Positions 5,330 through 21,441 of a DNA stretch of 22,017 nt are shown here, piece after piece. A program made the translations under genes and the position numbers. Source of the stretch: a virus. The notes beneath the pieces are model-generated. The model did no database searches and was not told the origin of the DNA. It was given only the letters and a program-made list of their open reading frames with translations. The stretch spans positions 1 to 22,017 of IMG/VR virus record IMGVR_UViG_3300021090_000448, one strand, 5' to 3'. How positions within the stretch are numbered: position 1 is the first letter of the stretch; each line of letters starts with the position of its first letter.

Positions 5330-5352
5330 TCTCGTAACCCCGATTAATTTGT

Positions 5353-5369
5353 GGCCCCCAATGGGGGCC
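5353..5369. other. Perfect GC hairpin upstream of the GH9-like gene
   Basis: GGCCCCC, loop AAT, GGGGGCC forms a perfect 7-bp stem 23 bases before the ATG at 5329, inside one of the few real intergenic gaps (5330-5583). On the minus strand it is followed by ACAAATTAATC rather than a T run, so it is not a typical intrinsic terminator. It could be an RNA-stability or translation-control element for the GH9-like gene, or part of a long 5' leader of the plus-strand small ORF at 5430. The structure is visible; the role is unknown. Confidence 0.5.
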
Positions 5370-5429
5370 GGCGGCGGCGATAAGCACGCGCCCCTTGCGC
5401 GCACCGCTAGGTTGTGATTGGCTTGGGAA

Positions 5430-7158: not shown

Positions 7159-7162
7159 GGCT

Positions 7163-7602: not shown

Positions 7603-7612
7603 GGTGTAGCCC

Positions 7613-8047
7613 TCACTTCGTGCTGTACGAGATGGTGACACCCGCAGCGGCGGACGAATTGTCGTTGTCCGCGATGCCGCCGGTCAGGCAGAGCCCGATG
7701 CCGTAGGCATAGAATTCACCGAACGGTCCAAGGGGGATCGCGATGCCGGCGCCACCGGTCGCGGCCGGTACGGCGTAGACTGCTACCGGCTCCACGCTAT
7801 TGCAGGCCGGAGCCGTCGCGACGTCGTAGAACTTAAGGTAGTAGATCGTCGCCGTGGTGTTGATCACGACCAGCTTGCAAAGCGTGCCGGTCGAACCCTT
7901 GATGCTCTTCGCGTTCGTCGATGCCGTGCTCAAGTGTTTTCCCGGCGTGCAGCCGATGGAGGGCTGCACGACAAGGACCTGCGCCATTCCCACGTCGGCA
8001 AAGAGGATCGAACCGCAGGCCAGGATGGCCGCTCTTATTTTCCACAT
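7613..8047 (-). CDS. Secreted conserved phage-associated beta protein (CLTGGIADND family type)
   Basis: 144 aa starting at MWKIRAAILACGSILFADVG; the ATG overlaps the preceding microprotein stop as TGATG. The signal probably ends at MAQ. The mature domain contains CTPGKHLSTASTNAKSIKGS, CKLVVINTTATIYYLKFYD and LCLTGGIADNDNS. I recognise these as a compact conserved domain of phage structural or accessory proteins in proteobacteria, usually annotated hypothetical. Four Cys are in positions typical of that type. A signal peptide on this domain is noteworthy. It may be a virion decoration or tail-associated protein adapted for export; that is inference. Confidence 0.78.
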   Translation of the reverse strand: MWKIRAAILACGSILFADVGMAQVLVVQPSIGCTPGKHLSTASTNAKSIKGSTGTLCKLVVINTTATIYYLKFYDVATAPACNSVEPVAVYAVPAATGGAGIAIPLGPFGEFYAYGIGLCLTGGIADNDNSSAAAGVTISYSTK

Positions 8048-8256
8048 CAGATCGCTCCCAAGTATTGGCTGTTGCAGGCGGCGGTGAAGTCGAGGCTGTT
8101 CGAACACGATGGGTCGACTGGCGGCGATCCACCCGAGAAACCTTTGCTGCCGGTGACGATCCGGCGCTGCTGTGGCGTGATCGCGTCGGCGAGCTGCGCG
8201 CCCCAGATCGCCAGCATCGCGAGCACGGCGAGCGCCGCGATCAGTTTCATTCGCAT
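8047..8256 (-). CDS. Secreted microprotein, paralogue 1 of the CNSQYLGA pair
   Basis: 69 aa with a Sec signal (MRMKLIAALAVLAMLAIWGA, cleavage near ADA). A short polar linker with GSKGFSGGSPPVDP leads to the C-terminal motif SCSNSLDFTAACNSQYLGAI. The start lies 11 bases after the preceding stop. The stop overlaps the next ATG as TGATG, exactly as in the paralogue at 7420-7602, so the unit 'microprotein then coupled secreted protein' occurs twice. The function is unknown. The motif is conserved while the spacer has diverged, suggesting that the C-terminus is the functional part. Confidence 0.72.
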   Translation of the reverse strand: MRMKLIAALAVLAMLAIWGAQLADAITPQQRRIVTGSKGFSGGSPPVDPSCSNSLDFTAACNSQYLGAI

Positions 8257-8267
8257 GATGCGTCCGA

Positions 8268-8762
8268 TCAGGGGATGACGATCAGCGTGAGGGTGCGGGG
8301 CGCGGCCTGGCTGACCGGCACGCCTGATGTGCCTGACCTGATCTTGATGAAGCGGTGGCCGATGAAGTCGGCCAGCGGCACAATGATGTCGCTGCTGGCT
8401 GCGGCCGTGACGACGTATTCGCTGCCGTCCGAGCCTACAGTCACGTTGTTGTAGGTCCCGCCCGAAGCGCTCGCCGCCTGGAACGTGAGGTTCGCCGCCG
8501 TCCAGCTCGACGGGATGATGACGCGGACAAGTTTGCGGCCGTTAAGGTCGATCTCGGACGTGATGCTATTCGTCGCCTGATCGATCACGGCGCTCTGCGG
8601 CTTCGGCATCGCGAGCAGGACGCGGAGCTGAGACTCGCTCGTCGTCCCGGCCGAGTTGCAGGGATAGTCCGCGGTGTCGTCGCAGGCGATGGCTGGCGCC
8701 GCCAGGGCGAACAGCGCGAACGCGACGCCGCAACCGGCGAGAAGGCGGCGGAAATTCTTCAT
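8268..8762 (-). CDS. Secreted beta-rich protein of unknown function (164 aa)
   Basis: Starts at MKNFRRLLAGCGVAFALFAL, with GGAGG five to six bases upstream; a longer reading from 8801 would enter the previous gene's 3' end. The signal peptide ends around PAIA, just before CDDTADYPCNS. The mature part contains beta strands (VRVIIPSSWTAANLTFQAAS, GTYNNVTVGSDGSEYVVTAA, PRTLTLIVIP) and the segment VPLADFIGHRFIKIRSGTSG. This pattern resembles small phage-borne proteins annotated as hypothetical. It is the first of eight consecutive genes with export signals, directly after the lysis region. Confidence 0.78.
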   Translation of the reverse strand: MKNFRRLLAGCGVAFALFALAAPAIACDDTADYPCNSAGTTSESQLRVLLAMPKPQSAVIDQATNSITSEIDLNGRKLVRVIIPSSWTAANLTFQAASASGGTYNNVTVGSDGSEYVVTAAASSDIIVPLADFIGHRFIKIRSGTSGVPVSQAAPRTLTLIVIP

Positions 8763-8776
8763 GGTAGCCTCCGATG

Positions 8777-9019
8777 TCAGGCGAAATGCTTTGCGAGCCA
8801 AGTCGCAATCCCGCCCGCGATGGCGCCCGTGATCGCGCTGATCACGGAGTTGGCGCCGGCTTGGTGGGATTGCTTGATTTCGACGCGCGAAAGCCGTGTG
8901 TCGTGCCCGTCCATGCGTTCGGTGCCGCGCTCCATGCTCTCCTTGATCGAGTTCACCGTCCCTTCGATGTTGCCGAGGGCGCGGTTAATTTCGGCAAGTT
9001 GTACGTGGAGCTCGGACAC
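8777..9019 (-). CDS. Coiled-coil protein with C-terminal TM (holin-associated, XhlA-like in form)
   Basis: 80 aa from a GTG start with AAGGAG about nine bases upstream; the upstream gene's stop falls within that ribosome-binding region. Residues 1-55 are polar with heptad-like spacing (VQLAEINRALGNIEGTVNSI, MDGHDTRLSRVEIKQ). Residues 57-77 form a transmembrane helix (NSVISAITGAIAGGIATWLA). The layout matches small phage membrane proteins next to holins, such as haemolysin XhlA-like proteins, and the neighbouring gene is holin-like. A role in lysis is inferred from context. Confidence 0.72.
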   Translation of the reverse strand: MSELHVQLAEINRALGNIEGTVNSIKESMERGTERMDGHDTRLSRVEIKQSHQAGANSVISAITGAIAGGIATWLAKHFA

Positions 9020-9026
9020 GACGCGC

Positions 9027-9218
9027 TCACTCCTTGCTGAAGACGGACGTCTTGGTGACGACGCGCAGCGCGACGGTGAGCCCGCCCGAGATCATCAGCG
9101 CGGTGTTGCCGCTCACGTACTGCGTCCAGTCGACGCCAGCGAGGTACGAGAGACCGGGGACGCCAACGGCGATGGCGAGACCGGTCAGGATCGTGCGCCA
9201 GCCTTGAAGCTTCTGCAT
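9027..9218 (-). CDS. Holin-like small membrane protein (63 aa)
   Basis: It begins MQKLQGWRTILTGLAIAVGV with AAGGAG eight bases upstream. There are two hydrophobic segments (about 8-26 and 40-54), separated by GVDWTQYVSGN. The WRT...GVDWTQYV pattern is one I associate with small phage membrane proteins in alphaproteobacterial phages that sit beside endolysins. Its size, topology and position between the SH3b protein and the coiled-coil membrane protein fit a holin. Direct evidence for pore formation cannot be read from sequence. Confidence 0.68.
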   Translation of the reverse strand: MQKLQGWRTILTGLAIAVGVPGLSYLAGVDWTQYVSGNTALMISGGLTVALRVVTKTSVFSKE

Positions 9219-9269
9219 GTCAGTTCTCCTTGTCGCGAGGGGTTGTGTCCGGAAGCCGCCGGACGCGGG

Positions 9270-9566
9270 TCAGAGTAGAAGTGCGCCGAAGAGCAGGCCC
9301 GCGAGCGCGATGGCGCCGAAGATCCATGGCCACGACGGGACGTCGACCGGCTTCGGTGCCGGCTGCGCCGCGATGCTCACGTATTCGCCGTGGACGTAGC
9401 CGCGCTGTGCGGTGCGATGCACCTCGACATAGAGCCACCCGTCTTGCTCGCTGCGGATCACATCGACCTGCTCGCCCTTGCCGAGCTGGTCGACGACGGC
9501 GCCGGTCATGCGCGGGGTGTCGCGCAGGTTCAATCCGTCGGAAATGACGGTTCCGATCTGAGGCAT
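9270..9566 (-). CDS. SH3b-domain protein with C-terminal membrane anchor
   Basis: 98 aa starting at MPQIGTVISDGLNLRDTPRM, with AAAGGA seven bases upstream; a longer in-frame ORF from 9698 overlaps the upstream gene and is rejected. Residues 3-65 form a bacterial SH3 (SH3b/SH3_3) domain: LNLRDTP, then VVDQLGKGEQVDVI, DGWLYVEV, GYVHGEYVSI. A short Pro linker follows, then a TM helix (WPWIFGAIALAGLLFGALLL) that reaches the C-terminus. SH3b domains bind peptidoglycan, so an envelope-tethered partner of the endolysin is plausible. A 51-base gap with a weak GTCCGG/CCGGAC stem follows it. Confidence 0.82.
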   Translation of the reverse strand: MPQIGTVISDGLNLRDTPRMTGAVVDQLGKGEQVDVIRSEQDGWLYVEVHRTAQRGYVHGEYVSIAAQPAPKPVDVPSWPWIFGAIALAGLLFGALLL

Positions 9567-9589
9567 GGCAAATCCTTTTTGGTTGGGGC

Positions 9590-10087
9590 TTAGCGCTTGG
9601 CGAGGCAGGCCCGCGCCTGCCGTTTCTGTTTTTCCGTAAGGCCACGGCGTTCGCCCTCGGCCTCGAGGTATTCCTTCGTAAACATGGCGGTCGCCCATCG
9701 GACCTTTGCGCAGGAGTACGGAAGGTCGAGCCCGTCATCGGCCGAGCGCGTTTGTGGCTTCGCTTGCGTCTTTCCTTGCGGCTTCGCCTTCGGCGTTGCC
9801 TTTGCCTTGGCCTTTGGCCTGGCCTTCGGCAGCGGCACACGCTGCGCGACCTCGGGCGCTTTCTGCGCCGCAGGCGGGATCGCATGGTGCCGCTCGGCTA
9901 CGGGCTCCAGCTTCGGCCGCGACGGAGGGAGCGGGACCGCAACAGATGCCGGCGCCGGCTTGTGATGCGGCCAAAGCCATTGCCGCAGTCTGGTGACGGC
10001 CTGCTCGATCCTGATGTCGGTCGCTGCATCGGCGGCCGAGCACGCGCCCAGCAACAGCAGGGCCGCGACAAGCGCGGCGTGTCTCAT
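9590..10087 (-). CDS. Lys/Pro-rich lipoprotein in the lysis region (spanin-like candidate)
   Basis: 165 aa starting at MRHAALVAALLLLGACSAAD. The ATG overlaps the endolysin stop as ATGA, and the longer ORF from 10153 is only a run-in over the endolysin. LLGAC is a good lipobox (lipidated Cys at residue 17). The middle is a Pro-rich and then Lys/Ala/Pro repeat-like linker (PKARPKAKAKATPKAKPQGK). The C-terminal module, LPYSCAKVRWATAMFTKEYL to RQARACLAKR, has two Cys. A Pro-rich lipoprotein right after an endolysin is the layout of an outer-membrane spanin (Rz1 type), but no inner-membrane spanin overlaps it, so the role is tentative. Confidence 0.75.
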   Translation of the reverse strand: MRHAALVAALLLLGACSAADAATDIRIEQAVTRLRQWLWPHHKPAPASVAVPLPPSRPKLEPVAERHHAIPPAAQKAPEVAQRVPLPKARPKAKAKATPKAKPQGKTQAKPQTRSADDGLDLPYSCAKVRWATAMFTKEYLEAEGERRGLTEKQKRQARACLAKR

Positions 10088-11235
10088 CTCTTGGGCGGCG
10101 CCGCGGCGAACGCGCCAAGGAGCCTCAGGCCAAGGTTCACGGCCGCGCCCCACCCGCCGGTCATACCGACCAGGCCGGTGAGAATGGGCGCGGCGGTGGC
10201 GATTGTCCCAATTGTGGTCGGCGCCTCGCCCATGCCGCCGGGCGTCCCGACCACGCCGAGTATCTGCAGGAGCGTCGATGCCGCGAAGGCGAAGGCGCTG
10301 AGTTGCACGCTCGGCTTTTCCCGCGCCGGTGTCGGGAGCACGGGCGCCGACGGTGCGGGCGCGGTCTCAACAACGGCGGGCGGCGGCTCGGCCGGCGCCT
10401 GACGCCCGCCGAGCAGGATGCCAACGATCTGGGTCAGGACCGCAATGGCGCGCGGGTCGAGCCCTGTTGCAGTTGCGGCCGGCGTTGCCGAACTGGATTG
10501 CGTTTCAGCCATCAGTCTCTCCAGGGTTGGCCTTAACATCGCGAGGAGCGAGGCCAGGGCGTGCAGGGTTTGGGCGACGTCCGCGGCCGAGCTCGGCAGC
10601 GCGGCCGTGGGCGCTGGCGCGATTGGCGCGGCCGGGCTGTCCTTTTCGGCCAGGTCCGCCGCGATGTCAGGGCGCAATTGCGTGAGCCGCTTGATCACGG
10701 TCATCACGCCGATCTGCGGGTCGTCGAACAATTCGTCCCATTCGTGGTCGGCAACGTACTTGCCGGTCTGCTCGTGGTTCGAGCCGGCCCAGACATACGG
10801 GCTGTTGACGCCCTTGCCGACGTAGCCGATGCCGTTAAAAATCTCGGCGGTGTAGCCCATGTACGCGGCGGACCAGTCCTGAATGAGATCAAGGTCCTTC
10901 AGCTTAAGCGCGTCGACCGCCGACTCTTCCCAAGTGAACGGCGGCGATCCGGCCTTCGGATGGCCGGCCGGCACGTGCACCGTTCGGGCTGTGAGCGGGT
11001 CACCGTTGTGCAGGTGCGTCGCGAAGTTGCATGAACTTTCGCGCATGTGCAGCGCGCCAATGAGATACCAGGGCACGCCGGTCTTCGCCTGCACCGATTT
11101 GTAACGCTGCTCTGCCGCAATGATCTTGCTCGCAAAGCGATCGGCGTTAGCGGCATCGTCGCCGCCTTTGATTGTGATGCTGCGCCACAGGTTCGCGTAG
11201 CCACGGGCGGTGGCTTCGAACGTCCAGCTGGTCAT
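10084..11235 (-). CDS. Endolysin, COG5526-type lysozyme, with long hydrophobic C-terminal extension
   Basis: 383 aa; GAGGA lies six bases before the ATG. Residues about 30-185 match the COG5526 'lysozyme family' fold: WYLIGALHMRESSCNFATHL with probable catalytic Glu66, followed by HNGDPLTARTVHVPAGHP and PPFTWEESAVDAL. These enzymes cleave peptidoglycan glycan strands. Residues about 200-320 are Ala/Pro-rich linkers with short hydrophobic stretches. Residues about 320-383 are hydrophobic (STLLQILGVVGTPGG, TAAPILTGLVGMTGGWG), so the protein may be membrane-associated after synthesis. No N-terminal signal is visible, so release probably depends on a holin. It is coupled to the downstream lipoprotein by ATGA. 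Confidence 0.88.
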   Translation of the reverse strand: MTSWTFEATARGYANLWRSITIKGGDDAANADRFASKIIAAEQRYKSVQAKTGVPWYLIGALHMRESSCNFATHLHNGDPLTARTVHVPAGHPKAGSPPFTWEESAVDALKLKDLDLIQDWSAAYMGYTAEIFNGIGYVGKGVNSPYVWAGSNHEQTGKYVADHEWDELFDDPQIGVMTVIKRLTQLRPDIAADLAEKDSPAAPIAPAPTAALPSSAADVAQTLHALASLLAMLRPTLERLMAETQSSSATPAATATGLDPRAIAVLTQIVGILLGGRQAPAEPPPAVVETAPAPSAPVLPTPAREKPSVQLSAFAFAASTLLQILGVVGTPGGMGEAPTTIGTIATAAPILTGLVGMTGGWGAAVNLGLRLLGAFAAAPPKR

Positions 11236-11251: not shown

Positions 11252-11566
11252 TCAGGAGTTGGGAGGCGGCCCGATCAGGCAGCGGGTCTTGCCGGCATTC
11301 TCGCCATGCATGAACCGGCAGCGCCACCACAGGCCGTCCTGCGACTTCCAGATCACGCGCTCTTTCGCGATGACCTCTCTAGTCTCCGCGATGAAGTAGC
11401 CGTCTTGCTGTTCGGCAACGCCGCCGGCCGGCACCGCTTCGCAATCCATGTCGTTGCAGCACCACTGCCCGCTCATCGGATCGGTCAGCCGGAGCTGGTT
11501 GATCCACGAATCATGGGCAAGCGCGGACGATGTAAGCAGCACGCTCGCGAAAACGATCAAGCGCAT
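11252..11566 (-). CDS. Small secreted Cys-rich protein (HDSWIN...CCNDMDC type)
   Basis: 104 aa with a Sec signal (MRLIVFASVLLTSSALA, then HDSW) and AGGA eight bases upstream. Conserved-looking features are HDSWIN, WCCNDMDCEAV (Cys36, Cys37, Cys42), ERVIWKSQDGLWWRCRF (Cys83) and a C-terminal RCLIGPPPNS (Cys96). I recognise this as a widespread hypothetical secreted family in rhizobial genomes and their phages, without known function. It sits between the tail-fibre genes and the endolysin with 9- and 16-base gaps, so it belongs to the same transcript. Confidence 0.8.
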   Translation of the reverse strand: MRLIVFASVLLTSSALAHDSWINQLRLTDPMSGQWCCNDMDCEAVPAGGVAEQQDGYFIAETREVIAKERVIWKSQDGLWWRCRFMHGENAGKTRCLIGPPPNS

Positions 11567-11575
11567 GACGGGGTC

Positions 11576-13186
11576 CTAATAGATCAGGCCGGAGAGCGAG
11601 AACTGATGATCGGTGCCCGCTGCCCGCCAAGTTCCGGTGCCCGAGACAACGCGACCAAAAATGGTGGCGTAGTGATAGTCTTCCGACAGGTTGGTCTTCG
11701 CGATGGCGCTGTGGCCGCTGCCATTGTAGTTGGCGGCGCCGAACGTGAACGCGACGCCGGACAGAATTTCGCCGGCGCCATCGAACGCGATGCGGCTGAA
11801 CATCGTAAAAACGCCGTCGCCCTGCAGCGCGCCACAGGCCTGCACCTGCCAGGTCTCGCCCGCCCAAAGCAATGCCTCCAGCCTGATCTCGGTGTTGATC
11901 TCGGTGAAGCTGGTCCCGGCCGTGCTGCGGTCGGTCGCGAAGTTGTTGAGCTGGCCCGCAACCGTCGGATTGAACCAGGAGCGCACGAAGCGCTGCGCCA
12001 TGGTGTCCTGCCAAGCCGGGCCGGTGATGATACGGCCCTGCCCGACCAGCACGCGGGTGGCGTCGCCGGTCTTGATCTTGTTGCCCCAGGTCGCGTCGAC
12101 CACAGGAGCGGTTGTCGAAGCCTCCAGTGACGTGACGACGCCCGCGGTGGCGACGGCATAGATGTAGTAGCGCGTGCCCGGCGTCAGGCTGGTCGCGGCC
12201 AGCGTCACGCCCGCCATCGGGACCGTGCACAAGACGCCGTTGATAAGCAGGAAGTGGCCGTTCTTCGGCAGCAGGATCAGGTTCGCCCCCGACTTCTGCA
12301 GCATACATTGACCGAACGCGGCGTGAAGGCTGAGCAGGCGCTCGATCCCGTCATCCGCCTTCGAGTAGTAGAGCCCGTCGGCCTTCGGATAGATCGCGAC
12401 CTTGTTGGCCGGCGGCGTAGCGGGTGCCGCCATCTCGGTCATTCGCACCGAGCCATCATCTTCGAGGGTCGGTATCGACCCCTGCACCTGCGTGCCGCCG
12501 ACGCCGTCGGTGCGGACGATCACGTTGTCGGTCGCGCCGACGTTGCCTGAGACCGTTCCGGCGTCGCCCGTGCGGGTGAACGCGAAGATAACGCTGTCGC
12601 CGTTTTGAAACGGGCTCGCCGTGCTCGACCCCGTGACCGTGACGACGAGCTTGCGATAGCCGGCCGCGTTCGTGACAGCCGAGAGCGTACCGACGAGACG
12701 CTTCGAAGACTCGCCGATCTTGAACAGGCTCCATTGCCCCTTGACGGCCGCCGAGCTGTCGTCGAGGGAGTCGAGCGCCGTGGTCCAGGTCATCCCTGCG
12801 GTGTCGGCGAGGTCGACAAACAACGTCGTCGCTACATTCTGCGCCGCATTGTTGAAGCGCAACTTTCCGTTGCCGGGGTCGGCATCGGCGATCGACGACA
12901 GGTCAACAGTGTAATTGATCGAATAGCCGGCGCCGGCCTGGCTGATCGAGTTGATCAACGCTTGCAGCGTCATGCGGTTGTAGATGCCGGTCTGGGTATT
13001 GCGAACCCAGACTTCGACATTCGCGCCATCGCTCACGGCCGCGAGCTGGATCAGATCTTCCCATTTCGGCTGGATGATCCAATAGCCGTTGACCTTCACC
13101 ACCGTAATGCCGCCCGCACCGACGGCCCGGCTTGGGAACCTCGACAGCACCTGAAGCTTGAGCGCGGAGCGCGACGAAATGGCCAT
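11576..13186 (-). CDS. Phage tail fibre / appendage structural protein (536 aa)
   Basis: Starts at MAISSRSALKLQVLSRFPSR. The ATG overlaps the preceding stop as TGATG; the in-frame extension to 13405 (Arg/His-rich) is a shadow of the previous gene. The N-terminus, ending in VKVNGYWIIQPKWEDL, is a short attachment-type motif common in rhizobial phage tail proteins. The middle is beta-rich with GSSTASPFQNGDSVIFAFTR. The C-terminal part contains LLLPKNGHFLLINGVLCTVP and TRYYIYAVATAGVVTSLEA, typical of receptor-side beta domains. No enzymatic motif is visible. It probably forms part of the host-recognition apparatus with its two upstream neighbours. Confidence 0.78.
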   Translation of the reverse strand: MAISSRSALKLQVLSRFPSRAVGAGGITVVKVNGYWIIQPKWEDLIQLAAVSDGANVEVWVRNTQTGIYNRMTLQALINSISQAGAGYSINYTVDLSSIADADPGNGKLRFNNAAQNVATTLFVDLADTAGMTWTTALDSLDDSSAAVKGQWSLFKIGESSKRLVGTLSAVTNAAGYRKLVVTVTGSSTASPFQNGDSVIFAFTRTGDAGTVSGNVGATDNVIVRTDGVGGTQVQGSIPTLEDDGSVRMTEMAAPATPPANKVAIYPKADGLYYSKADDGIERLLSLHAAFGQCMLQKSGANLILLPKNGHFLLINGVLCTVPMAGVTLAATSLTPGTRYYIYAVATAGVVTSLEASTTAPVVDATWGNKIKTGDATRVLVGQGRIITGPAWQDTMAQRFVRSWFNPTVAGQLNNFATDRSTAGTSFTEINTEIRLEALLWAGETWQVQACGALQGDGVFTMFSRIAFDGAGEILSGVAFTFGAANYNGSGHSAIAKTNLSEDYHYATIFGRVVSGTGTWRAAGTDHQFSLSGLIY

Positions 13187-13560
13187 CAGGTCACGATCCC
13201 TTCGAGCACCGGCACGGTGCCGATGATGAGTTGCACAACTTCGCCATCGTCCTCGAGCGTGAGCCCGACCTGATAGGTCTTGGCCGCAAGCGCGCGCATT
13301 TGGTCCTTGGTGAAGGTCCATTCGAGGACGCCGGTCTCGACCAGCACGACCTGACCGCCGGTGAGCGTGGCTGTCAGGACCGGTGTGGGATTGGTCCCGA
13401 AGCAATAGTCGGATGGCCGCGAGTTCGTGTCGCGGACGGTGATCGTGATCTCATCCGCGCTCGAAAGATCGATCGCCTCGCCAGTCTCGCCATCGGTGAC
13501 CGACAGCGCTTCCGTCCAGGTCGCCTTGTTCGAAATTGGGAGAAGCGGTCCGATCAACAC
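13186..13560 (-). CDS. Small beta-sandwich appendage protein (BppU N-terminal-like in pattern)
   Basis: 124 aa from a GTG start at 13560. GAGG lies about eight bases upstream, and the upstream stop is one base before the start. The pattern LLPISNKATWTEALSVTD, DEITITVRDTN, VLTATLTGGQVVLVETG, LEWTFTKDQMRALAAKTYQV and GEVVQLIIGTVPVLEGIVT is that of small beta-sandwich adaptor proteins that decorate phage baseplates or fibres. It lies between two fibre genes and is coupled to the next by TGATG, which supports a role as adaptor or head domain for the fibre. Confidence 0.7.
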   Translation of the reverse strand: MLIGPLLPISNKATWTEALSVTDGETGEAIDLSSADEITITVRDTNSRPSDYCFGTNPTPVLTATLTGGQVVLVETGVLEWTFTKDQMRALAAKTYQVGLTLEDDGEVVQLIIGTVPVLEGIVT

Positions 13561-13561
13561 G

Positions 13562-14542
13562 TCAGAGCCTCATGTACCAGGTGCCGAGGAAGAACGGCGG
13601 CATCTTGTTGACCGGCGTTCCCGATCCGCCCAACGGCACGTTGCCGCCGAAGGTCGCACTGAGCGTGCCGGTGCTACCGTCGGAAGTGACCACGCGCGTT
13701 GCACCGCCGCCGGGCAGGTTGATGTTGCCCACGTAGTTCAATTTCTCGAGCGTGAAATTGCCTGCCGTTATGTTGATGGTCAGGCTGCCGGCACTCAGCG
13801 TCACGTTCGGCAAATTGGGCTGCCCCAGGGGCACGTCGTCGTCGCCGCCGGACGATCCGCCTTTCGTCGGCAGCCCGGTGATGACATAGGCCGTGGCGAT
13901 CCGCGCCGAGTCCGGCGCGCCCATGTCGGTCACGCCGAAGAAGGCGCGGCCCTTCGCGTCGATCAGCGTGAGCTTCTTATTGGCGGCCCAGTCGGCGGCG
14001 GCATTCGCGCCGCGACCGTCGACTACTGGGCAGATCGTGTCGTCGAAGTTTTGGTAGCAATGCAGGAACAACTGCTCGCAATCGCTGTTCGCGCGCTCAG
14101 ACGCGCCCGAGTTGGCCGAACCGATCGTCAAGCCATTGAGGCGGACCCAGCCGCTCTTGATCCCGCCCGCCGGTCGACACAGCACGTCGCCCGTCGTAAG
14201 GGTCGAATTCGGATCGACCGTCGATCCCCCGCCGCCACCGCCCGATGAAGGTCCGATCGACGGCACCTGGAGCAGATCGAAGCCGCCGTTCGACGTGTCG
14301 CCTGTTTCATCCGTGAGAATGAGCCGATAGGTGCCGTCGGCGACATAGAACAACGGGATGCGACCGCTATCGTCGGCGGTGAGCGGGTTCTGCGCTGTGA
14401 TCAGCAGGTTGATGTCCTGGAACGTCTCGGCGAAGTCGCCGATGACGCCGCCCGCATAGACGGAGAGCTTCCCGCCCTTGAGCGGCCGGCCATCCAGATC
14501 TTGCTGCTGGGTGTTGCACACACCCGGGAACGTTCCAGCCAT
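13562..14542 (-). CDS. Tail fibre protein with collar-type C-terminus (326 aa)
   Basis: The ATG at 14542 is preceded by TTGAGGACAGA, a good ribosome binding site. Residues 1-95 (FPGVCNTQQQDLDGRPLKGG, DSGRIPLFYVADGTYRLILT) are a beta domain recurrent at the N-terminus of fibre or neck-appendage proteins. A Gly6 linker near residue 105 leads to a region with LTTGDVLCRPAGGIKSGWVR and DAKGRAFFGVTDMG, ending in NKMPPFFLGTWYMRL. That last segment is the characteristic end of phage tail-collar/fibre-tip domains. It is the first gene after the terminator at 14559-14582. Confidence 0.85.
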   Translation of the reverse strand: MAGTFPGVCNTQQQDLDGRPLKGGKLSVYAGGVIGDFAETFQDINLLITAQNPLTADDSGRIPLFYVADGTYRLILTDETGDTSNGGFDLLQVPSIGPSSGGGGGGSTVDPNSTLTTGDVLCRPAGGIKSGWVRLNGLTIGSANSGASERANSDCEQLFLHCYQNFDDTICPVVDGRGANAAADWAANKKLTLIDAKGRAFFGVTDMGAPDSARIATAYVITGLPTKGGSSGGDDDVPLGQPNLPNVTLSAGSLTINITAGNFTLEKLNYVGNINLPGGGATRVVTSDGSTGTLSATFGGNVPLGGSGTPVNKMPPFFLGTWYMRL

Positions 14543-14558: not shown

Positions 14559-14582
14559 AAGGGCGGCCCGTGGACCGCCCTT
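14559..14582 (-). terminator. Intrinsic terminator of the ejection-gene block
   Basis: On the minus strand AAGGGCGG pairs with CCGCCCTT (8 bp) around an 8-base loop, followed by TTTCGTTTTG. It lies about 170 bases after the stop of the last ejection gene (14754) and 17 bases before the next ATG. The tract after the stem lies inside the leader of the tail-fibre gene, so readthrough or an antiterminator would set the fibre/lysis ratio. The plus-strand side has no T run. Confidence 0.72.
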
Positions 14583-14598
14583 GAAGGGAATTCACCCG

Positions 14599-14627
14599 TT
14601 GCGAGAGATCGCCGGGGCGCCTATCTT
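14599..14627 (+). promoter_or_regulatory. Sigma70-type promoter for the plus-strand membrane ORF
   Basis: TTGCGA (14599-14604), 17-base spacer, TATCTT (14622-14627): close to the alphaproteobacterial housekeeping consensus. Transcription would start near 14634, and a GAGGGAA ribosome binding site follows at 14642-14648, eight bases before ATG 14655. It faces opposite to the late genes. Confidence 0.55.
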
Positions 14628-14654
14628 GGATGTACCGATCCGAGGGAACGCCTC

Positions 14655-14990
14655 ATGGGCTGGTACATCCTGCAAGTCCTGGTCGCTGTTGCGATGCTGG
14701 TCGCTTTCGTCGAGCTCCGCTGGACGTCCAGCGCCGAGGTCGCGACCGTCGCATCAATTGCCGTCACCTTTGCCGTCACCTTTCTGCTGTCCCGTCTGAT
14801 CGACTTTGGCCGGCGTATCGCCGTGCGTTGCAGCTTTGTTGGCCATCAACACCAGGCGGGCGGCGACGGCTTGAGCCTCCCGGGAACCTTGGGGCATGGT
14901 CGCTATTTGCCGGAACCGGTTCGCCGCCTCAGGGCTCGTCAGCAGGGTCGCGATTTCGTGCGCGCCCTTCCCCAGCCGCCAGCGCTCTAG
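14655..14990 (+). CDS. Small two-TM membrane protein on the plus strand, convergent with the ejection gene
   Basis: A 111-aa frame from ATG 14655. The first 55 residues look real: MGWYILQVLVAVAMLVAFVE forms one TM, and TVASIAVTFAVTFLLSRLID forms a second, ending in basic FGRRI. A good ribosome binding site and promoter lie immediately upstream, and bases 14583-14753 contain no minus-strand gene. From 14754 the frame overlaps the 3' end of the 738-aa ejection gene on the other strand, and its composition becomes shadow-like (Arg/Gln/Pro-rich). The functional part may therefore be the N-terminal half, with the original stop lost. Holin or superinfection-exclusion type roles fit small phage membrane proteins but are not shown. 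Confidence 0.55.
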   Translation: MGWYILQVLVAVAMLVAFVELRWTSSAEVATVASIAVTFAVTFLLSRLIDFGRRIAVRCSFVGHQHQAGGDGLSLPGTLGHGRYLPEPVRRLRARQQGRDFVRALPQPPAL

Positions 14991-16970
14991 TGTGTCCTTG
15001 ACCTTGGTCGGCAGCTTGATGCCGCCGGTCGCGACCGCAGTCCCAGCCTCCTGAACCGGCGTGCCGCGGCGCAAGTCCGCCAGCACTTCGGTATTGAACG
15101 CCGTCTGCGATCCGATCTTCTGGCGCGTGCCTTGCGCCTCGACGAATTGCAGGAAGCGATCGAGGCCGGTCCAGACATGGTCGCCATTGGGCAGCGTACG
15201 CACGGCCGCCTCGAGATTCGCCGCCTGTTGCGGGTTGCCGCGGATGACGGCCGCGAACTTCGCCCCGCCGAACTGGTTGGGGCCGCTCACAAGGTTCTGC
15301 GTCGCCTCGTTGAACACGCTCTCGACGTAAGCGCGCACCAATTCGCGAGCGGCGGCCGGCCTGCGCCGAGCCAGCGCGGTCACCGCCGTGGTGATTTCAT
15401 CGGCGCTGTTCGGCAGCGGGTTTGCCGGGAACAGCGCTTCGATCGCGGCCTTCGTGGTCGTGTCCTTCGACGCTATCTTGCCGAGCGGACCGTCGAGCAG
15501 CGGCTGCAGGAATCGCTCCCGGCCAAGCCTCTCGATGTCGAGCGCGGTCTCGTAGTCGCGCGAAGCACGCACGCCGGCATCGCGCACCACCGTGGCGTCT
15601 GAGCCAAGGCCCGACGACACCTGCATGTTGCGCTGCGCGTTGACCGGTGCCGACGCGTTCTCGGCCATCTGGTTGAGTTGCTTCTTCACCTCATTCAGAA
15701 AGCCGACGCTGTCCTCCGGCAGGCCCTGGACGTAGCGCGCGAGCTGCGGGTTGTCCTGCACCGTAGCGCGCGCCTCATCGTAGCCGGGCAGCGCCCGGAC
15801 CCGCTGCATCTCCTGTTGTGAGAGCCGGACCAGCGCGGCGCGATCGTAGTGTGGCTCCGCGACGGTATTGATCGCCTGGCGGACGCCGGTGACCTCCTCC
15901 TCCGCCGCTCGGCCGACAGCGGGCCCGATCGAGGACGGAGCATTGGTCGCTGGCGCCACCTCATCGAACGCGCTACGGCCGGCCGCCTCGACCTGGCCGG
16001 CGCGCTGCGCAAAGAATGGCTTGAGCTCGCCCGCACCCTCGACCACGCGCTGGAGGTCGGAAAGCTTGGTCGCGCCGTTAGAGACGTAGTCGATCGCTTC
16101 CGCACGCGTGATCGGCACGCGCGCTATGCGGGCCTCCTGAAACAGGTTCTCGGCCGTGTCCAGCATCGCATTGTCGACATGCTCGGGCATCGCGGACCGA
16201 ACAGCCGACGTCGCGCTCTTCGGCCGCGCGACCATCGCGGCGCCGCCGCCGGTCAGCACCGCAGCTGCGGGCCGGACATACGGCTCGGCCGCGGGCGCGA
16301 CTTTCTGCGCCGCCTGGCCGGCCGCTTCGGAAGCGACACCGGGCAGGAGCGCAAACTTCAAGAACCGACCGAGCGCGCCGCCACCGCCGGGCAACATGGC
16401 GCCCGCCGTGAATTCGCCGACGGTCTCGCCGTAGTGGCCGAGCGTCGACTTCGGCTTGTAGAACTCGCCGGTGTGCTCCTCGATCTTGCCCTGGATCTCG
16501 GCCGAGGTCGGCGGCGCTCTGCCGACCACCTTGGACGCGGCGAACAAGGGCGCGAGATGAGGAACGTTCCGCAGGCTCTCGACGATGACCTGCTTGATCC
16601 GCGCCTGCGTATCGCCGTTGCCTTTGTCCCCGGCGATCAGCGAAGACAAATTGCGATCTTGCTTGATGTGCGGGGCAAGAGTGGCCGCGAGCTTGTCGAT
16701 GCCGGCGTCCGCGACTTGGGCGATGTCGCCGGCCATGCCGGCGATGCCGATCGCGCCTTTCACGCCGCCGATCCCAACCGACTTGGCGGTGTCGATCGTG
16801 ATGTCACCGGCGCTCATGTCCTGGCCAGTCGCGGCCGGCGCTGCTGGAGCGGCAACCGGAAGCGCGCCCCATGCCGCCGGCCCGTCTGCCGCAGCCGGGC
16901 GCCCTGCGGGCGCGGGCGCCGTGACGCGCTCGGCGCCCCAGTCAGCGGGGTTTACTCCGGCTTGCGCCAT
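14754..16970 (-). CDS. Large Ala-rich internal virion / DNA-ejection protein (738 aa)
   Basis: The ATG overlaps the previous gene's end by 19 bases. Residues 1-50 are Ala/Pro-rich. Residues about 60-130 include a Gly/Ala helical hydrophobic stretch (IGGVKGAIGIAGMAGDIAQV). Another stretch at about 180-245 (GEFTAGAMLPGGGGALGRFL) could be membrane-active. The rest is long amphipathic helix with no enzymatic motif I can identify, ending in charged GQQKGDGKGDGN. Its position as the third of three genes after gp10 corresponds to P22 gp16, an ejection protein delivered into the host envelope with the DNA. The assignment rests on context, length and composition, not on direct similarity that I can read. 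Confidence 0.72.
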   Translation of the reverse strand: MAQAGVNPADWGAERVTAPAPAGRPAAADGPAAWGALPVAAPAAPAATGQDMSAGDITIDTAKSVGIGGVKGAIGIAGMAGDIAQVADAGIDKLAATLAPHIKQDRNLSSLIAGDKGNGDTQARIKQVIVESLRNVPHLAPLFAASKVVGRAPPTSAEIQGKIEEHTGEFYKPKSTLGHYGETVGEFTAGAMLPGGGGALGRFLKFALLPGVASEAAGQAAQKVAPAAEPYVRPAAAVLTGGGAAMVARPKSATSAVRSAMPEHVDNAMLDTAENLFQEARIARVPITRAEAIDYVSNGATKLSDLQRVVEGAGELKPFFAQRAGQVEAAGRSAFDEVAPATNAPSSIGPAVGRAAEEEVTGVRQAINTVAEPHYDRAALVRLSQQEMQRVRALPGYDEARATVQDNPQLARYVQGLPEDSVGFLNEVKKQLNQMAENASAPVNAQRNMQVSSGLGSDATVVRDAGVRASRDYETALDIERLGRERFLQPLLDGPLGKIASKDTTTKAAIEALFPANPLPNSADEITTAVTALARRRPAAARELVRAYVESVFNEATQNLVSGPNQFGGAKFAAVIRGNPQQAANLEAAVRTLPNGDHVWTGLDRFLQFVEAQGTRQKIGSQTAFNTEVLADLRRGTPVQEAGTAVATGGIKLPTKVKDTLERWRLGKGAHEIATLLTSPEAANRFRQIATMPQGSREAQAVAARLVLMANKAATHGDTPAKVDQTGQQKGDGKGDGN

Positions 16971-18802
16971 GGCTGTCCATCAGCGCCGATGAAGCGCTTG
17001 CCCGGTTCGAGTTTGTCGTAATCCGCCTTGTTGTTGACGCGCGGCAGGCCGGCGTTCGCGGGATCTTGCTGTACGCGGAACGTGTTGAAGGCGGCCATCG
17101 GATTTTCCAGCGCTCGCATCTCTCTGATCGCTTGCGCAGGCGTGATGTCTTTGTTGAGCACGCGAGCGGCGATGTCGGCGCGACCTTCGTGGCTGCGGGC
17201 GAGCGCCTCGATGGTGTTGAGGATGATCTCGTTACCGCCTGGCGTGTTCATGAGCGACGGCAACGACGCCTTGAACATCTTGGCGTCGAAGTCCGAGGTC
17301 GCGCCCGTGCCGGGGACGCGTTGGGCCGGCGTCAACTTGTTGATCAGCGCGTCCATTGCTTCGATGTCGCTGATCCCTTCCGTCTTCACGCCGACCTGGC
17401 CGAGATATTTCTTGATGACCGCGGCCGCGCCGGTATCGATCTTGCCACCGAGCCGGCGCAATTCCCCAACCAGGCCGATGTTCTCGCTGGCCTGGATGCC
17501 GTCCTCGAGCACCTTGGCCCAAAGGTCTGCCTGCTTACCTCCGGCGTGTTTCGCGAACTCGGTTTCCTGTTTCTGGTCGATGCTGACCTGGGTGGCGCCG
17601 GCCTTCTTGCGATCCGAGTCCCACTCGCTGAAGGTCCGCGTCTCGCCCTGCGTCCGGGAGTAGAGGTACATCTTCACCGGGTTGGGCAACCGGAACATAT
17701 CGAACGAGAGCGGCTGGCGACCGGCGGCCTGCTCTTGCTGCACATACGCCTGATAGTTCTTCATGTCGGGCGTCGGCTCCGACACTTTTTGCATCGCGTC
17801 CGCGACCGTCGAGGCGGTCTTCTCGGCCGCCTCCTTGGTGTTGGGCGGAATGCCGGGACTGGCCGCGACGCCGCGCAGATAGCGCATGTAGGCGCCCGGC
17901 GCGTCGGGCCCGAACTTGTCGACCCACGGCTTCGGCACGATGCCGCCAAGGCTCGGATCGCCGATGCTCGCCGGGCCCCGTCCTGGTCCTTGCGGACCTG
18001 GCGCGGCGGCAGGAATTGCGCCGGCCGGCGCGGCCGTGGGCGCCGCTGGCGCGCCCGGCGCACCGGGCGTTGCAGCCGGAGCCGCGTTCGTTGCGGGCGC
18101 CGGGGCGGTGGTGGCGGGTTGACCGCCGCCCTGCCCTCGCTCCGCGAGAACCTGGCGCTCGAGCTGCGCGGCCTGCGTCAGGCTCAAGGGCTGGTTCGGG
18201 TCGACACCGAGCTTCGCGGCGGCCGCATTGATCGCCGGCCCCGCCAATTCCTCCGGCATGTACTTGGTGACGACGCTCGCCACCGTGTTGAGGCCGTTGT
18301 CGCCGCCACGGTAGCCGTTGGTGGGCGTCTTCGCGCTCGCCGGTGTCGCGCCAGGCGTCGAGGCCCCGACCGGGAAGGCGGGCCGCGGCGCCGGTTGTGC
18401 CGCGCCTGCCGGCGCCGGCAGGCTTGCGGGCGTTGCGCTGGTCGCCGAACCAGGCGAGCCCGGCAAGGATCCGGTGCCGATCACGCCAGCGGCCTCCCGG
18501 CCGGCCGCCATCCCGGAGCGCTGGATGTCGAGATTGGACAGATTGGTGCCAGTGCCGAAGTCGCCGAGACGATAGAGCCGATCGGCCATCGCAGCATAGT
18601 CAGGCTGGCCGGCCGCGTTCTTCGGCACGCCCTCCTTGAAGGCGTTCTGCTTCTCCAGCTCGCGCTGTTGCTGCTGGTCGCCGAACGCGCTGGTGCGGCC
18701 TTCGAAGTACCGATCGCCCAGCCGCGACAACGGCGTGAAGTCAAGCAGAGGCGCCGCGTAATTAGCACCGCCTGGTCCGTTGACGATGAACGGGTACGCC
18801 AC
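16952..18802 (-). CDS. Internal virion / ejection protein with Ala-Pro linker (616 aa)
   Basis: GTG start at 18802 overlapping the preceding TAG by one base. Residues 1-80 include SRLGDRYFEGRTSAFGDQQQ, a common opening of podoviral ejection-type proteins. Residues about 105-265 are low-complexity Ala/Pro/Gly linker. The C-terminal half contains GTGATSDFDAKMFKASLPSL followed by MNTPGGNEIILNTIEA and ends FIGADGQPWRKPE. I recognise both from large structural proteins of alphaproteobacterial podoviruses. Order and size correspond to P22 gp20. No lysozyme or transglycosylase motif is visible. Confidence 0.72.
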   Translation of the reverse strand: MAYPFIVNGPGGANYAAPLLDFTPLSRLGDRYFEGRTSAFGDQQQQRELEKQNAFKEGVPKNAAGQPDYAAMADRLYRLGDFGTGTNLSNLDIQRSGMAAGREAAGVIGTGSLPGSPGSATSATPASLPAPAGAAQPAPRPAFPVGASTPGATPASAKTPTNGYRGGDNGLNTVASVVTKYMPEELAGPAINAAAAKLGVDPNQPLSLTQAAQLERQVLAERGQGGGQPATTAPAPATNAAPAATPGAPGAPAAPTAAPAGAIPAAAPGPQGPGRGPASIGDPSLGGIVPKPWVDKFGPDAPGAYMRYLRGVAASPGIPPNTKEAAEKTASTVADAMQKVSEPTPDMKNYQAYVQQEQAAGRQPLSFDMFRLPNPVKMYLYSRTQGETRTFSEWDSDRKKAGATQVSIDQKQETEFAKHAGGKQADLWAKVLEDGIQASENIGLVGELRRLGGKIDTGAAAVIKKYLGQVGVKTEGISDIEAMDALINKLTPAQRVPGTGATSDFDAKMFKASLPSLMNTPGGNEIILNTIEALARSHEGRADIAARVLNKDITPAQAIREMRALENPMAAFNTFRVQQDPANAGLPRVNNKADYDKLEPGKRFIGADGQPWRKPE

Positions 18803-19749
18803 TAGACGAACTCCGCGAGCTTCGATGCAAACTCTGTCGCGCGCCGATAGTCGACGGCCTTGAAGCCGGCGATGTCGGCGACGGCGTCGGGCTCGACGTC
18901 CTCCACCTGCTGGGCAATGAGGCCGATGTGCGTGGTGTTCGGATCATCGACGTATTTGTAGCGATAGATCTCTTGCCCGTCGTAGAGCTTGCCGACCGGT
19001 TCGATATCCGTCTTCAGGTCTTCATCCGAGAAGATGAAGGAGCCGAGCGTGGTCGCGATGTCGCCAAGGCCGGACATGGCCGACGATCCGGCCTTGCTGC
19101 CGAGCGTGTTGCTGCCAAGCCCCGCGATGCTCTGACCGAAGTTGAGCAGGTTGGCGCTGGCATTGTTGCCGGCGAGCGCCGCGTTCGCCGCGGCGGCGCC
19201 CTTCTGCACTTCGGTCGAATATCCGAGCTCCGATTGCTTCCCGAAGATCCCGCTCTGCAGGTTGGCCAGGTTCGAATACATGCCTCCGATGCCGCCCGCG
19301 GCCGCGTTCGATTGCTGCAGGAAGGGCATGAGATTCTGGCCGTATTGATCCCACCGCTGGTTGGCCATGCCCTGGCCGTAGTTCAGCAGGTCGATGTTGG
19401 TCCCGCCCGACGCGAGCTGTCCCGTACGCGATTGGTTGCGCAGGATGTTTTCGTTGCCCTGGTTGAGCGCAAATTGGTAGCCGGGCCCGGCCTGGAAATT
19501 CTGAAGAGCGCGCGTGTTGCCTTCGGTGCCGTTCGCTCCGGCGAAGTCGGCATAGGCCTGCTGGCCCTGGTTGGCGGTGGTGTAATTCGTCAAGAACGGC
19601 TGCAGGCCCGCCGTCAGGCTATTGGTGCCGTACTCCAGCCCCTTGTTGAGATAGGCCGAGCCGATGTCCTTGCCTTTGTCGAGCGCGGCCGTCTGCAGCA
19701 CTGCGGCCTTGTCGGCGTTCTTGGTCGTGAATGCGTCGAAGATGCCCAT
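18802..19749 (-). CDS. Ejection-type protein with C-terminal S74 autochaperone domain (315 aa)
   Basis: The ATG lies one base after the preceding stop. Residues 1-235 are Gly/Ala/Asn/Gln-rich with repeats of the YQFALNQGNENILRNQSRTG and LASGGTNIDLLNYGQGMANQ type, typical of proteins annotated as DNA-transfer or ejection proteins in podoviruses (P22 gp7 position). Residues about 240-315 form a short intramolecular chaperone: FSDEDLKTDIEPVG, YRYKYVDDP, THIGLIAQQVEDVEPDAV. Ser241 of SDEDLK is the expected self-cleavage residue of peptidase S74 domains, with Lys246 following. S74 domains usually trim trimeric fibres, so cleavage here would suggest trimeric assembly of an ejected or tail-tip protein. 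Confidence 0.82.
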   Translation of the reverse strand: MGIFDAFTTKNADKAAVLQTAALDKGKDIGSAYLNKGLEYGTNSLTAGLQPFLTNYTTANQGQQAYADFAGANGTEGNTRALQNFQAGPGYQFALNQGNENILRNQSRTGQLASGGTNIDLLNYGQGMANQRWDQYGQNLMPFLQQSNAAAGGIGGMYSNLANLQSGIFGKQSELGYSTEVQKGAAAANAALAGNNASANLLNFGQSIAGLGSNTLGSKAGSSAMSGLGDIATTLGSFIFSDEDLKTDIEPVGKLYDGQEIYRYKYVDDPNTTHIGLIAQQVEDVEPDAVADIAGFKAVDYRRATEFASKLAEFV

Positions 19750-19750: not shown

Positions 19751-19987
19751 TCACGTCAACCTGATCTGCACGGCGTTGCCGTTTCGGTACAAGCCATTGA
19801 TCGCGACGCCCGCCGCGGCCGCGGCGATATCGTTGGCCGCGTTGGTCAACGGACCGATTTGGTTTGCGTTGAGCAGCCGCACCACGGCGTCGAGCGACAG
19901 CAGGTAGCGGGCAAAGTCGAGCTGCGCTGGCGTGTTGCCGACGATCGGCTGTACCTGCGAATAGCTCCGAAGCACTTTGTCCGTCAT
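19751..19987 (-). CDS. Small conserved protein between tail hub and ejection genes (78 aa)
   Basis: The ATG overlaps the gp10-like stop as ATGA. The sequence is largely helical: SYSQVQPIVGNTPAQLDFAR, YLLSLDAVVRLLNANQIGPL, NAANDIAAAAAGVAINGLYR. There is no signal peptide or TM helix. It occupies the place where P22 has the tail-needle/scaffold genes, but it is far too short for a needle. It may be a chaperone or minor virion protein for the ejection complex. The function is unknown; that it is a gene is supported by its tight fit between neighbours. Confidence 0.72.
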   Translation of the reverse strand: MTDKVLRSYSQVQPIVGNTPAQLDFARYLLSLDAVVRLLNANQIGPLTNAANDIAAAAAGVAINGLYRNGNAVQIRLT

Positions 19988-21441
19988 GGCGCTCTCGCGT
20001 TGATGCTTTGCGTACCGCCCATCAGCGCGGCATAGACGTCATCGGAGACGTCGAGGCGCCAGCGGTGGCCGATCGGCTCCGCCTGGCCGGCATTGGTGAC
20101 GAACACGCGGCGGCGGCCTTGCGCTTGCTCGCCAAGCTCGCGCAACAGCGCGTTGCCCCAATGGACGCCGCCGTCGCGAGACCACGATACGGCCACGCGC
20201 GGATTTCGTTGCGAGGCCGTGCCCGACGCCTTGCCGACGCCGGCTACGAAATTGAAGTCGGCGCGCGCGACGCGCTGCCGCACCGGGAAGCCCTGGACGA
20301 GCCCGCTTTCCAACCGCATGCGCAGCGGGCTTCCGAGCTCATTGAACACGGTGTCGTCGATCGCGGCGAGGTTGCCGGTCTGCAGATCGCCGGCAATCCA
20401 CTTGCCGAAGGCATTGAGGCCGCCGGTTGCGCGCCAGCGAGTGAACAGGCCCGCGCTGAAGCTGTCGCGCTCGTTCCACTTCTCGGTCGAGAGGTTGAAT
20501 TCCCACGACCAGGTCGGCGCCGAGAGTGCCCAGAACAAATGCCCGGCGTGAACGTAGCAAGAGGCCTCGATGCCGTCCGGATTGGTCTTGCCGGTCGCTG
20601 CGATGAGTCGATCAAGATCGGGTGGCGAGACCTTTTCGGGCTCGAGCCCGTTGAGCCGATAGACCGCGAAGTCGTCGCCGACCCAGTGCGGCCGCGCGAA
20701 GCCGTCTTCCCACCCCGCAATCGCGTTGCGGCCCAGCAGCCCGCGATCGATCACCTTGAGCCGGCTGTAGGGGAACTTCGGCGCCGTCTCGGCGGTGTTG
20801 TGATAGACCTCGATCGACTTCTGCTTCAAGAACAGCGCAACGCCCAGATAGGGCACGCCGCGCAACAGCGTGTCGTTGCCGCGGCTGCGGATCGTGGTGA
20901 AGGTCTGAGTGTTGACGGTGACCGAATTCGGCCCCGCCGCGAAGGCCCGGCCGTCCGCGATCGTCCAGAAGAAATAGTCGTCCTGGCCGAAGACGGAATT
21001 CGGCACCGGCAGGTTGCCGCCGCCGTTGAACGTCGTGACGCTTCCGGTCGTGACGGCGAAAGCGCCATTGTCCGGGTCCACGCACTGGATCTCCGGTGTC
21101 GGCGTCGTGTTGTTGCGCGCGAACGTGACACGCTTGGTGCCCGGCAGGTTGCCGACCACCGTGACGACACCCGCGTTGTCGACGGTGACGAGCTTTCCCG
21201 AGAAGGCCGCAAAGACGAGATTGTTGACCAGGATGCCACCGCGAAAGCCGGTCTGTCCGGACGTCGCGAACAGCGCGAGGCCTGGCGAGCGCCGCCACAC
21301 CACGGATTTGCCTTCACTGTCCTTCGGCGCTGCGTCGCCAAGCGGCTCGGTGTAGCAATTGATCAGCCGACCGCCCGATTCCTGGGCGCTCGCCCCCGGC
21401 GCGCTCGACAACGCAAACGGGATCGGAACCGTGGGACGCAT
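19984..21441 (-). CDS. P22 gp10-like tail hub / packaged-DNA stabilisation protein
   Basis: 485 aa, close to the 472 aa of P22 gp10. It opens RPTVPIPFALSSAPGASAQE then SGGRLINCYTEPLG, the conserved start of the Phage_stabilise family (PF11134), in which structural genes are 'harvested' into an N-terminal beta region. Further landmarks are FLKQKSIEVYHNT, LIDRG-type VIDRGLLGRNAIAGWEDGFA, GLEPEKVSPPDLDRLI, and WSWEFNLSTEKWNERDSFSA near residue 320. gp10 forms the hexameric hub that plugs the portal with gp4 and gp26 after DNA packaging. Its ATG overlaps the preceding stop as TGATG, so it is coupled to the gp4-position gene. Confidence 0.9.
   Translation of the reverse strand: MRPTVPIPFALSSAPGASAQESGGRLINCYTEPLGDAAPKDSEGKSVVWRRSPGLALFATSGQTGFRGGILVNNLVFAAFSGKLVTVDNAGVVTVVGNLPGTKRVTFARNNTTPTPEIQCVDPDNGAFAVTTGSVTTFNGGGNLPVPNSVFGQDDYFFWTIADGRAFAAGPNSVTVNTQTFTTIRSRGNDTLLRGVPYLGVALFLKQKSIEVYHNTAETAPKFPYSRLKVIDRGLLGRNAIAGWEDGFARPHWVGDDFAVYRLNGLEPEKVSPPDLDRLIAATGKTNPDGIEASCYVHAGHLFWALSAPTWSWEFNLSTEKWNERDSFSAGLFTRWRATGGLNAFGKWIAGDLQTGNLAAIDDTVFNELGSPLRMRLESGLVQGFPVRQRVARADFNFVAGVGKASGTASQRNPRVAVSWSRDGGVHWGNALLRELGEQAQGRRRVFVTNAGQAEPIGHRWRLDVSDDVYAALMGGTQSINARAP

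What the first reader, a model, noticed from the sequence alone, without database searches (positions are those of the whole stretch)
14599..14990. Plus-strand membrane protein with its own promoter inside the late operon
Promoter (TTGCGA-17-TATCTT), ribosome binding site and a two-helix ORF line up correctly on the strand opposite to all neighbours, next to the minus-strand terminator. It could be a moron-like gene expressed in the lysogen, or an early/regulatory membrane protein. Its transcript would also be antisense to the 3' end of the ejection gene.
Basis: partly seen in the sequence, partly recalled or inferred. Interest (0 to 1): 0.68.

Follow-up and report, generated by a model that had tools for sequence, protein, structure and literature searches.

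The report
Antisense membrane gene opposite phage ejection gene
The odd backwards gene is real: it belongs to an undescribed family of tiny membrane proteins that many integrating (temperate) short-tailed phages of Alphaproteobacteria carry back-to-front against their DNA-ejection genes, the place where Salmonella phage P22 keeps the gene that stops rival phages injecting DNA, so it probably does that job.

Summary
The ORF (14655-14990 +, 111 aa) starts in the only large gap (211 nt) of a minus-strand late operon and overlaps the 3' end of the putative ejection gene (14754-16970 -) antisense. Its promoter candidate (TTGCGA-17-TATCTT) is the best sigma-70-like site in the window. It is not a chance ORF. 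A profile built from 49 relatives, without the window protein, scores it at 38.9 bits (E 1.4e-10); no shuffle exceeds 17.6. Among 75 ejection-gene clusters (90% identity), 56 carry the family at this junction on the opposite strand, 9 carry it at the next ejection-gene junction, and 10 lack it. The part outside the overlap is under purifying selection in relatives (dN/dS 0.06-0.31). All eight host-genome loci have it beside the ejection gene, and 23 of 24 tested phage records have an integrase hit. The model is a two-helix hairpin with an invariant Gln. No Pfam, PHROG, NCBIfam or PADLOC family describes it. P22 keeps sieA in the same slot and orientation, without sequence homology. Best explanation: a prophage-expressed inner-membrane superinfection-exclusion protein aimed at ejection proteins (about 0.5). 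That it is a conserved protein-coding gene is about 0.97. Expression and phenotype are untested.

The parts
14599..14627 (+). promoter candidate, TTGCGA-17-TATCTT; expected transcript start about 14634
   Evidence: Read directly. Best sigma-70-like site of the window on either strand by weight matrix; p 0.015 against local shuffles; fails the strict consensus scan. Activity not tested.
14642..14645 (+). ribosome binding site GAGG, 9 nt before the ATG
14655..14990 (+). the gene: 111-aa two-helix membrane protein of the new family (here 'family A')
   Evidence: Held-out profile match 38.9 bits, E 1.4e-10; relatives at the same junction
14658..14723 (+). first membrane helix (residues 2-23), with W3 and the invariant Q7
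   Evidence: AF2 model; Q in 39 of 39 members, W in 29 of 39
14733..14843 (+). second helix (residues 27-63, membrane part about 31-50, then basic RR), with T42; mostly antisense to the ejection-gene tail
   Evidence: T42 in 33 of 39, RR at 53-54
14844..14987 (+). tail, residues 64-111, predicted disordered; lies wholly inside the antisense overlap and is probably dispensable
   Evidence: low pLDDT; relative L184 ends at 80 aa with only 1 nt of overlap
14754..14990 (.). antisense overlap of the two genes; the two sets of codons are exactly in register
   Evidence: coordinates; same register in 71 of 72 loci
14559..14582 (-). operon-strand intrinsic terminator between ejection gene and tail-collar gene
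14754..16970 (-). putative ejection (DNA-transfer) protein, 738 aa; convergent neighbour and suggested target
   Evidence: Conserved order S74 - 616 aa - 738 aa - collar; all-helical model with disordered last 30 residues; assignment inferred, no family match
16952..18802 (-). second putative ejection protein; in 9 clusters the membrane gene sits at the 3' end of the gene in this position instead
13562..14542 (-). tail-collar / tail-fibre protein
   Evidence: phrog_8763, E 3.5e-28

Best explanation
The gene encodes a small inner-membrane helical hairpin, both ends probably in the cytoplasm. It is carried by temperate short-tailed phages and expressed from its own promoter in the lysogen. Its most likely job is superinfection exclusion: in a lysogen it sits in the inner membrane and disturbs the DNA-transfer conduit that an incoming related phage builds from its ejection proteins, as SieA does for P22. 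Shown here: a real, conserved, protein-coding family under purifying selection, tied to ejection genes, in integrase-bearing phages and prophages. Predicted: the membrane hairpin and the promoter. Inferred: expression in the lysogen, exclusion, and the ejection proteins as target. One inference step: ejection proteins act in a new cell before any gene of the incoming phage is expressed, so a membrane protein from this gene can meet them only in a cell that already carries the phage.
For: Family: held-out profile E 1.4e-10; best of about 3700 scored shuffles 17.6 bits against 38.9. Position: 56 of 75 clusters at this junction, 9 more at the next ejection-gene junction; hits in 2.78 Mb fell only at these junctions apart from one weak exception (L187). 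Coding: dN/dS 0.06-0.31 outside the overlap; substitutions by codon position 52/31/142 in selected pairs. Lysogeny: eight bacterial-genome loci, 8 of 8 with a strong copy at the ejection gene, one genome with an extra weak hit; integrase hit in 23 of 24 tested records, 22 over the Pfam cut-off. P22: gene 16 (+), sieA (-) with own promoter, tailspike 9 (+). [quoted passage not shown] escape mutations lie in the C-terminal regions of gp16 and gp20; SieA comes in three types under 30% identical (PMC10883804), as this slot holds at least three protein families here. Family distance follows the ejection gene (partial Mantel r 0.54) more than the collar gene (0.14). Lysis candidates lie elsewhere.
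Against: No expression or exclusion data. No sequence similarity to SieA, and two helices instead of three. The ejection assignment of the neighbour rests on position, helical content and weak fold hits, not on a family match. Promoter-like signals upstream of relatives are only weakly enriched (7 of 40 with p < 0.05). The correlation with the ejection gene is partly forced by the overlap. dN/dS could not be measured for the window gene itself, which has no close relative (best identity about 30%).
Confidence: 0.5

Rival explanations
1. A lysogen-expressed membrane moron with another purpose: it changes the host envelope or blocks unrelated phages, and sits beside ejection genes because that gap tolerates insertions.
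For: Moron-like features; unrelated families share the slot.
Against: The gene has moved, but only to another ejection-gene junction; its divergence tracks the ejection gene.
Confidence: 0.25
2. A lytic-cycle membrane protein such as a holin, antiholin or lysis timer.
For: Two helices and small size.
Against: Opposite strand to the late genes of the window; holin-like 8777-9019 and amidase/SH3-like 9270-9698 lie elsewhere; no lysis PHROG matches any of 39 members.
Confidence: 0.08
3. The transcript, not the protein, matters: an antisense RNA that damps the ejection gene in the lysogen.
For: Antisense overlap retained in the same register in 71 of 72 loci.
Against: Protein-level selection outside the overlap; overlap shrinks to 1 nt in L184.
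Confidence: 0.08
4. A host-takeover or early lytic membrane protein with no role in the lysogen.
For: Opposite strand to late genes.
Against: No early gene recognised near it; the tie to ejection genes is left unexplained.
Confidence: 0.07
5. A chance ORF: the reverse complement of a hydrophilic, GC-rich gene tail reads as hydrophobic.
For: The overlap is in the codon register that turns hydrophilic codons into hydrophobic ones; long antisense ORFs are common in this window.
Against: First helix lies outside the overlap; held-out homology, dN/dS and position.
Confidence: 0.02

Closest known systems
SieA of Salmonella phage P22 (phrog_7745)
   Same: Same slot between last ejection gene and tail-fibre/spike gene, convergent with the ejection gene, own promoter annotated, small multi-helix inner-membrane protein of a temperate short-tailed phage; several unrelated sequence types in the slot.
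   Different: No sequence similarity; 2 helices and usually 80-135 aa against 3 helices and 162-164 aa; here the gene overlaps the ejection gene antisense, while P22 sieA ends 22 nt past it; hosts are Alphaproteobacteria.
gp15 of Escherichia phage HK97
   Same: Predicted inner-membrane exclusion protein blocking DNA entry, encoded as a moron (as cited in PMC10883804).
   Different: Long-tailed phage; [quoted passage not shown] no sequence comparison made here.
Overlapping exclusion genes olg1 / gene 10 of Pseudomonas phage Fc02
   Same: Genes on opposite strands overlap and both affect superinfection (PMC9936078).
   Different: Lies in the repressor region of a Mu-like phage, not at ejection genes; no sign of kinship, not compared by sequence.

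Membership tests
SieA (phrog_7745) | sequence homology to SieA | tested here: not met
   family profile against P22 SieA scores below zero; no PHROG match for the window protein
SieA (phrog_7745) | between ejection gene and tailspike/fibre gene, opposite strand | tested here: met
SieA (phrog_7745) | integral membrane protein with three helices | tested here: not met
   two helices in the model; SieA shows three hydrophobic segments by hydropathy scan
SieA (phrog_7745) | blocks DNA injection in a lysogen | not testable with these tools
   needs plating and DNA-entry assays
SieA (phrog_7745) | own promoter active in the prophage | tested here: inconclusive
   best promoter-like site in the window, activity untested; strict scan negative
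Phage moron | extra gene between conserved genes, absent or elsewhere in relatives | tested here: met
   56 at slot 1, 9 at slot 2, 10 without, of 75 clusters
Phage moron | own promoter and terminator, expressed in the lysogen | tested here: inconclusive
   promoter candidate only; a terminator-like site at 14811-14830 lies inside the ORF; no RNA data
Holin | late expression within a lysis cassette | tested here: not met
   opposite to the late strand, away from the lysis-like genes
Temperate phage gene | carriers have integrase or lie in bacterial chromosomes | tested here: met
   the window record itself is a 22-kb piece and was not tested for an integrase

The most novel reading that the evidence does not exclude
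Exclusion gene and target are locked together. The membrane protein is read from the strand opposite the C-terminal tail of an ejection protein, in exact codon register, so recombination cannot easily separate an exclusion protein from the ejection protein it must match, and each shapes the other's sequence. It would be an antisense pairing of a phage's exclusion factor with its target.
Probability: 0.12. Interest if true: 0.78.

Novelty: new variant of a known kind. Interest (0 to 1): 0.57.

Why it matters
[quoted passage not shown] If this family does the same, the strategy reaches far beyond enterobacterial phages, into Bradyrhizobium, Nitrobacter, Methylobacterium, Sphingopyxis and relatives, with a smaller protein and one invariant membrane residue to mutate. 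The gene was not annotated in the phage record where this was seen (OP596614) and has no model in the four family libraries searched, probably because it is short and lies antisense to a longer gene. Other genes of this kind are probably being missed.

Tried and rejected
Direct homology search with the window protein alone found nothing in the viral contigs or phage records; relatives came only through neighbouring genes. A first pairwise alignment with L004's slot gene suggested kinship, but L004 belongs to a separate family B. Chance-ORF and antisense-hydropathy artefact: rejected. RNA element: no Rfam match. tRNA: none. Known families: none for the family (single-member weak hits only). Homology to SieA: rejected. 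The 738-aa neighbour has no solved-structure relative by sequence and no significant PDB fold match. A conserved promoter across relatives: only weak enrichment. The ORF list's longer form (TTG at 14478, 170 aa) was set aside because the family start matches ATG 14655. I expected 10084-11235 to be a lysozyme; no tool supported that.

Full report
What is in the window. The window is a 22-kb virus record. Its likely genes run on the minus strand: head closure Hc3 (19984-21441, phrog_578 E 2.5e-71), an S74-type tail or ejection-region protein (18802-19749), two large proteins (16952-18802 and 14754-16970), a tail-collar protein (13562-14542, phrog_8763 E 3.5e-28) and further tail genes. These are packed with gaps of at most 51 nt, apart from one gap of 211 nt between 14542 and 14754. 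A minus-strand terminator lies at 14582-14559. The strict promoter scan finds nothing (8 of 12 matches), but by weight matrix this is the best site on either strand of the window. Codon-position GC in the non-overlapping part is 67/42/85%, as expected for a coding frame.

Is it a gene? The protein alone finds no relative in the viral contigs or phage records. I therefore collected relatives of the neighbouring genes and read the same junction in each. Many carry an opposite-strand ORF with two hydrophobic helices that starts about 90-190 nt downstream of the ejection gene's stop and overlaps it antisense. A profile from 49 of these, without the window protein, matches the window protein with 38.9 bits and E 1.4e-10. 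The best of about 3700 scored shuffles reached 17.6 bits; those include shuffles keeping each helix's own composition. A six-frame search of 2.78 Mb finds the family at the ejection-gene junction in 72 of 97 loci. In ten more loci it sits at the junction before the last ejection gene, again antisense to the 3' side of an ejection gene. Clustered at 90% ejection-protein identity, 56 of 75 clusters have it in slot 1, 9 in slot 2, and 10 lack it; those ten are mostly the most distant homologues. Outside the overlap, dN/dS in related pairs is 0.06-0.31, and substitutions fall 52/31/142 on codon positions 1/2/3 in the selected pairs (chi-square p 7e-21). The chance explanation is excluded. These selection figures come from relatives; the window gene has no close relative to test.

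What the protein looks like. The AlphaFold2 model has helices at residues 2-23 and 27-63 with pLDDT mostly 75-90, and a low-confidence tail from 64 on (mean pLDDT 71, pTM 0.36). Gln 7 is the one invariant residue in 39 members; Trp 3 (29 of 39) and Thr 42 (33 of 39) are common, and Arg-Arg follows the second helix. The loop averages 0.5 basic residues and the stretch after helix two averages 4.1, which by the positive-inside rule suggests both ends in the cytoplasm. The tail is probably not essential: in L184 the protein is 80 aa and overlaps the ejection gene by one base. In 71 of 72 loci the two genes overlap in exact codon register. That register turns hydrophobic codons into hydrophilic ones on the other strand, and the ejection protein's last 30 residues are predicted disordered. 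Since the loci are related by descent, the shared register shows an old overlap, not repeated choice.

Who carries it. Eight bacterial-genome contigs with the ejection gene were found, from Rhizobiaceae, Rhodospirillaceae, Sphingopyxis, Methylobacterium/Methylorubrum and Nitrobacter. All eight have the gene at the ejection junction, and in whole-genome searches the strong match is single-copy in each (one genome has a second, weak hit). In the Methylobacterium group 19 of 99 genomes have it, and 14 of 15 inspected copies lie opposite an ejection homologue. In Bradyrhizobium phage ppBeUSDA76-2 it lies in a stretch without annotation. Of 24 tested phage records, 23 have an integrase hit, 22 over the Pfam cut-off. 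One of the 24, L004, carries the family B gene instead of this family, and one (L205) was only a weak match to this family. The window record itself was not tested for an integrase.

Same slot, other proteins. Related phages with other ejection genes carry two further small membrane-protein families on the opposite strand at the same junction: family B (motif WPWNvWL, 26 loci including duplicates) and family C (3 loci). None of their representatives has a PHROG match.

Likely function. Phage P22 has the same layout: ejection gene 16 (11484-13313 +), sieA (13336-13830 -) with its own promoter, then tailspike gene 9. [quoted passage not shown] escape mutations fall in the C-terminal regions of gp16 and gp20, and three SieA types share under 30% identity (PMC10883804). 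The new family shares no detectable sequence similarity with SieA and has two helices instead of three, so it cannot be filed as a SieA. It fits the same role: temperate phages, small membrane protein, always beside ejection genes, moving only between ejection genes, diverging with the ejection gene more than with the collar gene (partial Mantel r 0.54 against 0.14; partly forced by the overlap). Ejection proteins act before the incoming phage expresses anything, so a product of this gene can meet them only in a cell that already carries the phage. I put the exclusion reading at about 0.5. Lysis is less likely, because holin- and amidase-like genes lie at 8777-9698 on the late strand. A purely antisense-RNA role does not explain the protein-level selection.

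Limits. There are no RNA, protein or phenotype data. 'Ejection protein' for 14754-16970 is inferred from gene order, an all-helical model and weak fold similarity to phage proteins, some with a transglycosylase domain and one named injection protein; no family model matches it. Promoter signals upstream of relatives are only weakly enriched. Literature searches covered open-access papers only; none that came up describes this family.

Verdict. This is a new, unannotated protein family that probably works like P22 SieA: a new variant of a known kind. The most novel reading not excluded is that exclusion protein and target are coupled through the antisense overlap.

Noticed in passing
L004:16952-17377 and 25 other loci listed: A second small membrane-protein family (motif WPWNvWL) occupies the same opposite-strand slot in related phages with other ejection genes; a third (family C) is in L074, L108, L127.
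   Followed up: partly
window 14559-14582 (-) and upstream of the slot gene in L090, L094, L139, L149, L159, L163, L165, L178, L189: A hairpin followed by T on the operon strand sits just before the tail-collar start in the window, and similar hairpin/A-run sequence is visible in many relatives; late transcription would need antitermination to pass it.
   Followed up: partly
window 6361-8801 (-): Run of small proteins with signal-peptide-like starts; the proteins at 7420-7641 and 8047-8256 end in almost the same motif (CSNsLDFTxxCNSQYLGA).
   Followed up: no
window 5584-6345 (-) and 4094-5437 (-): 5584-6345 begins with a twin-arginine-like signal (MAKLLIPRRRFLLGAAATLF); 4094-5437 has a weak TAT signal match, which looks unusual for a phage tail region.
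   Followed up: no
L193, L164, L189 upstream of the slot gene: On the operon strand the start of a short protein with a signal-peptide-like N-terminus lies divergent from the membrane gene, before the collar gene.
   Followed up: no
window 10084-11235 (-): 383-aa protein conserved in many related phages with no match in Pfam, PHROGs or PDB sequences.
   Followed up: partly
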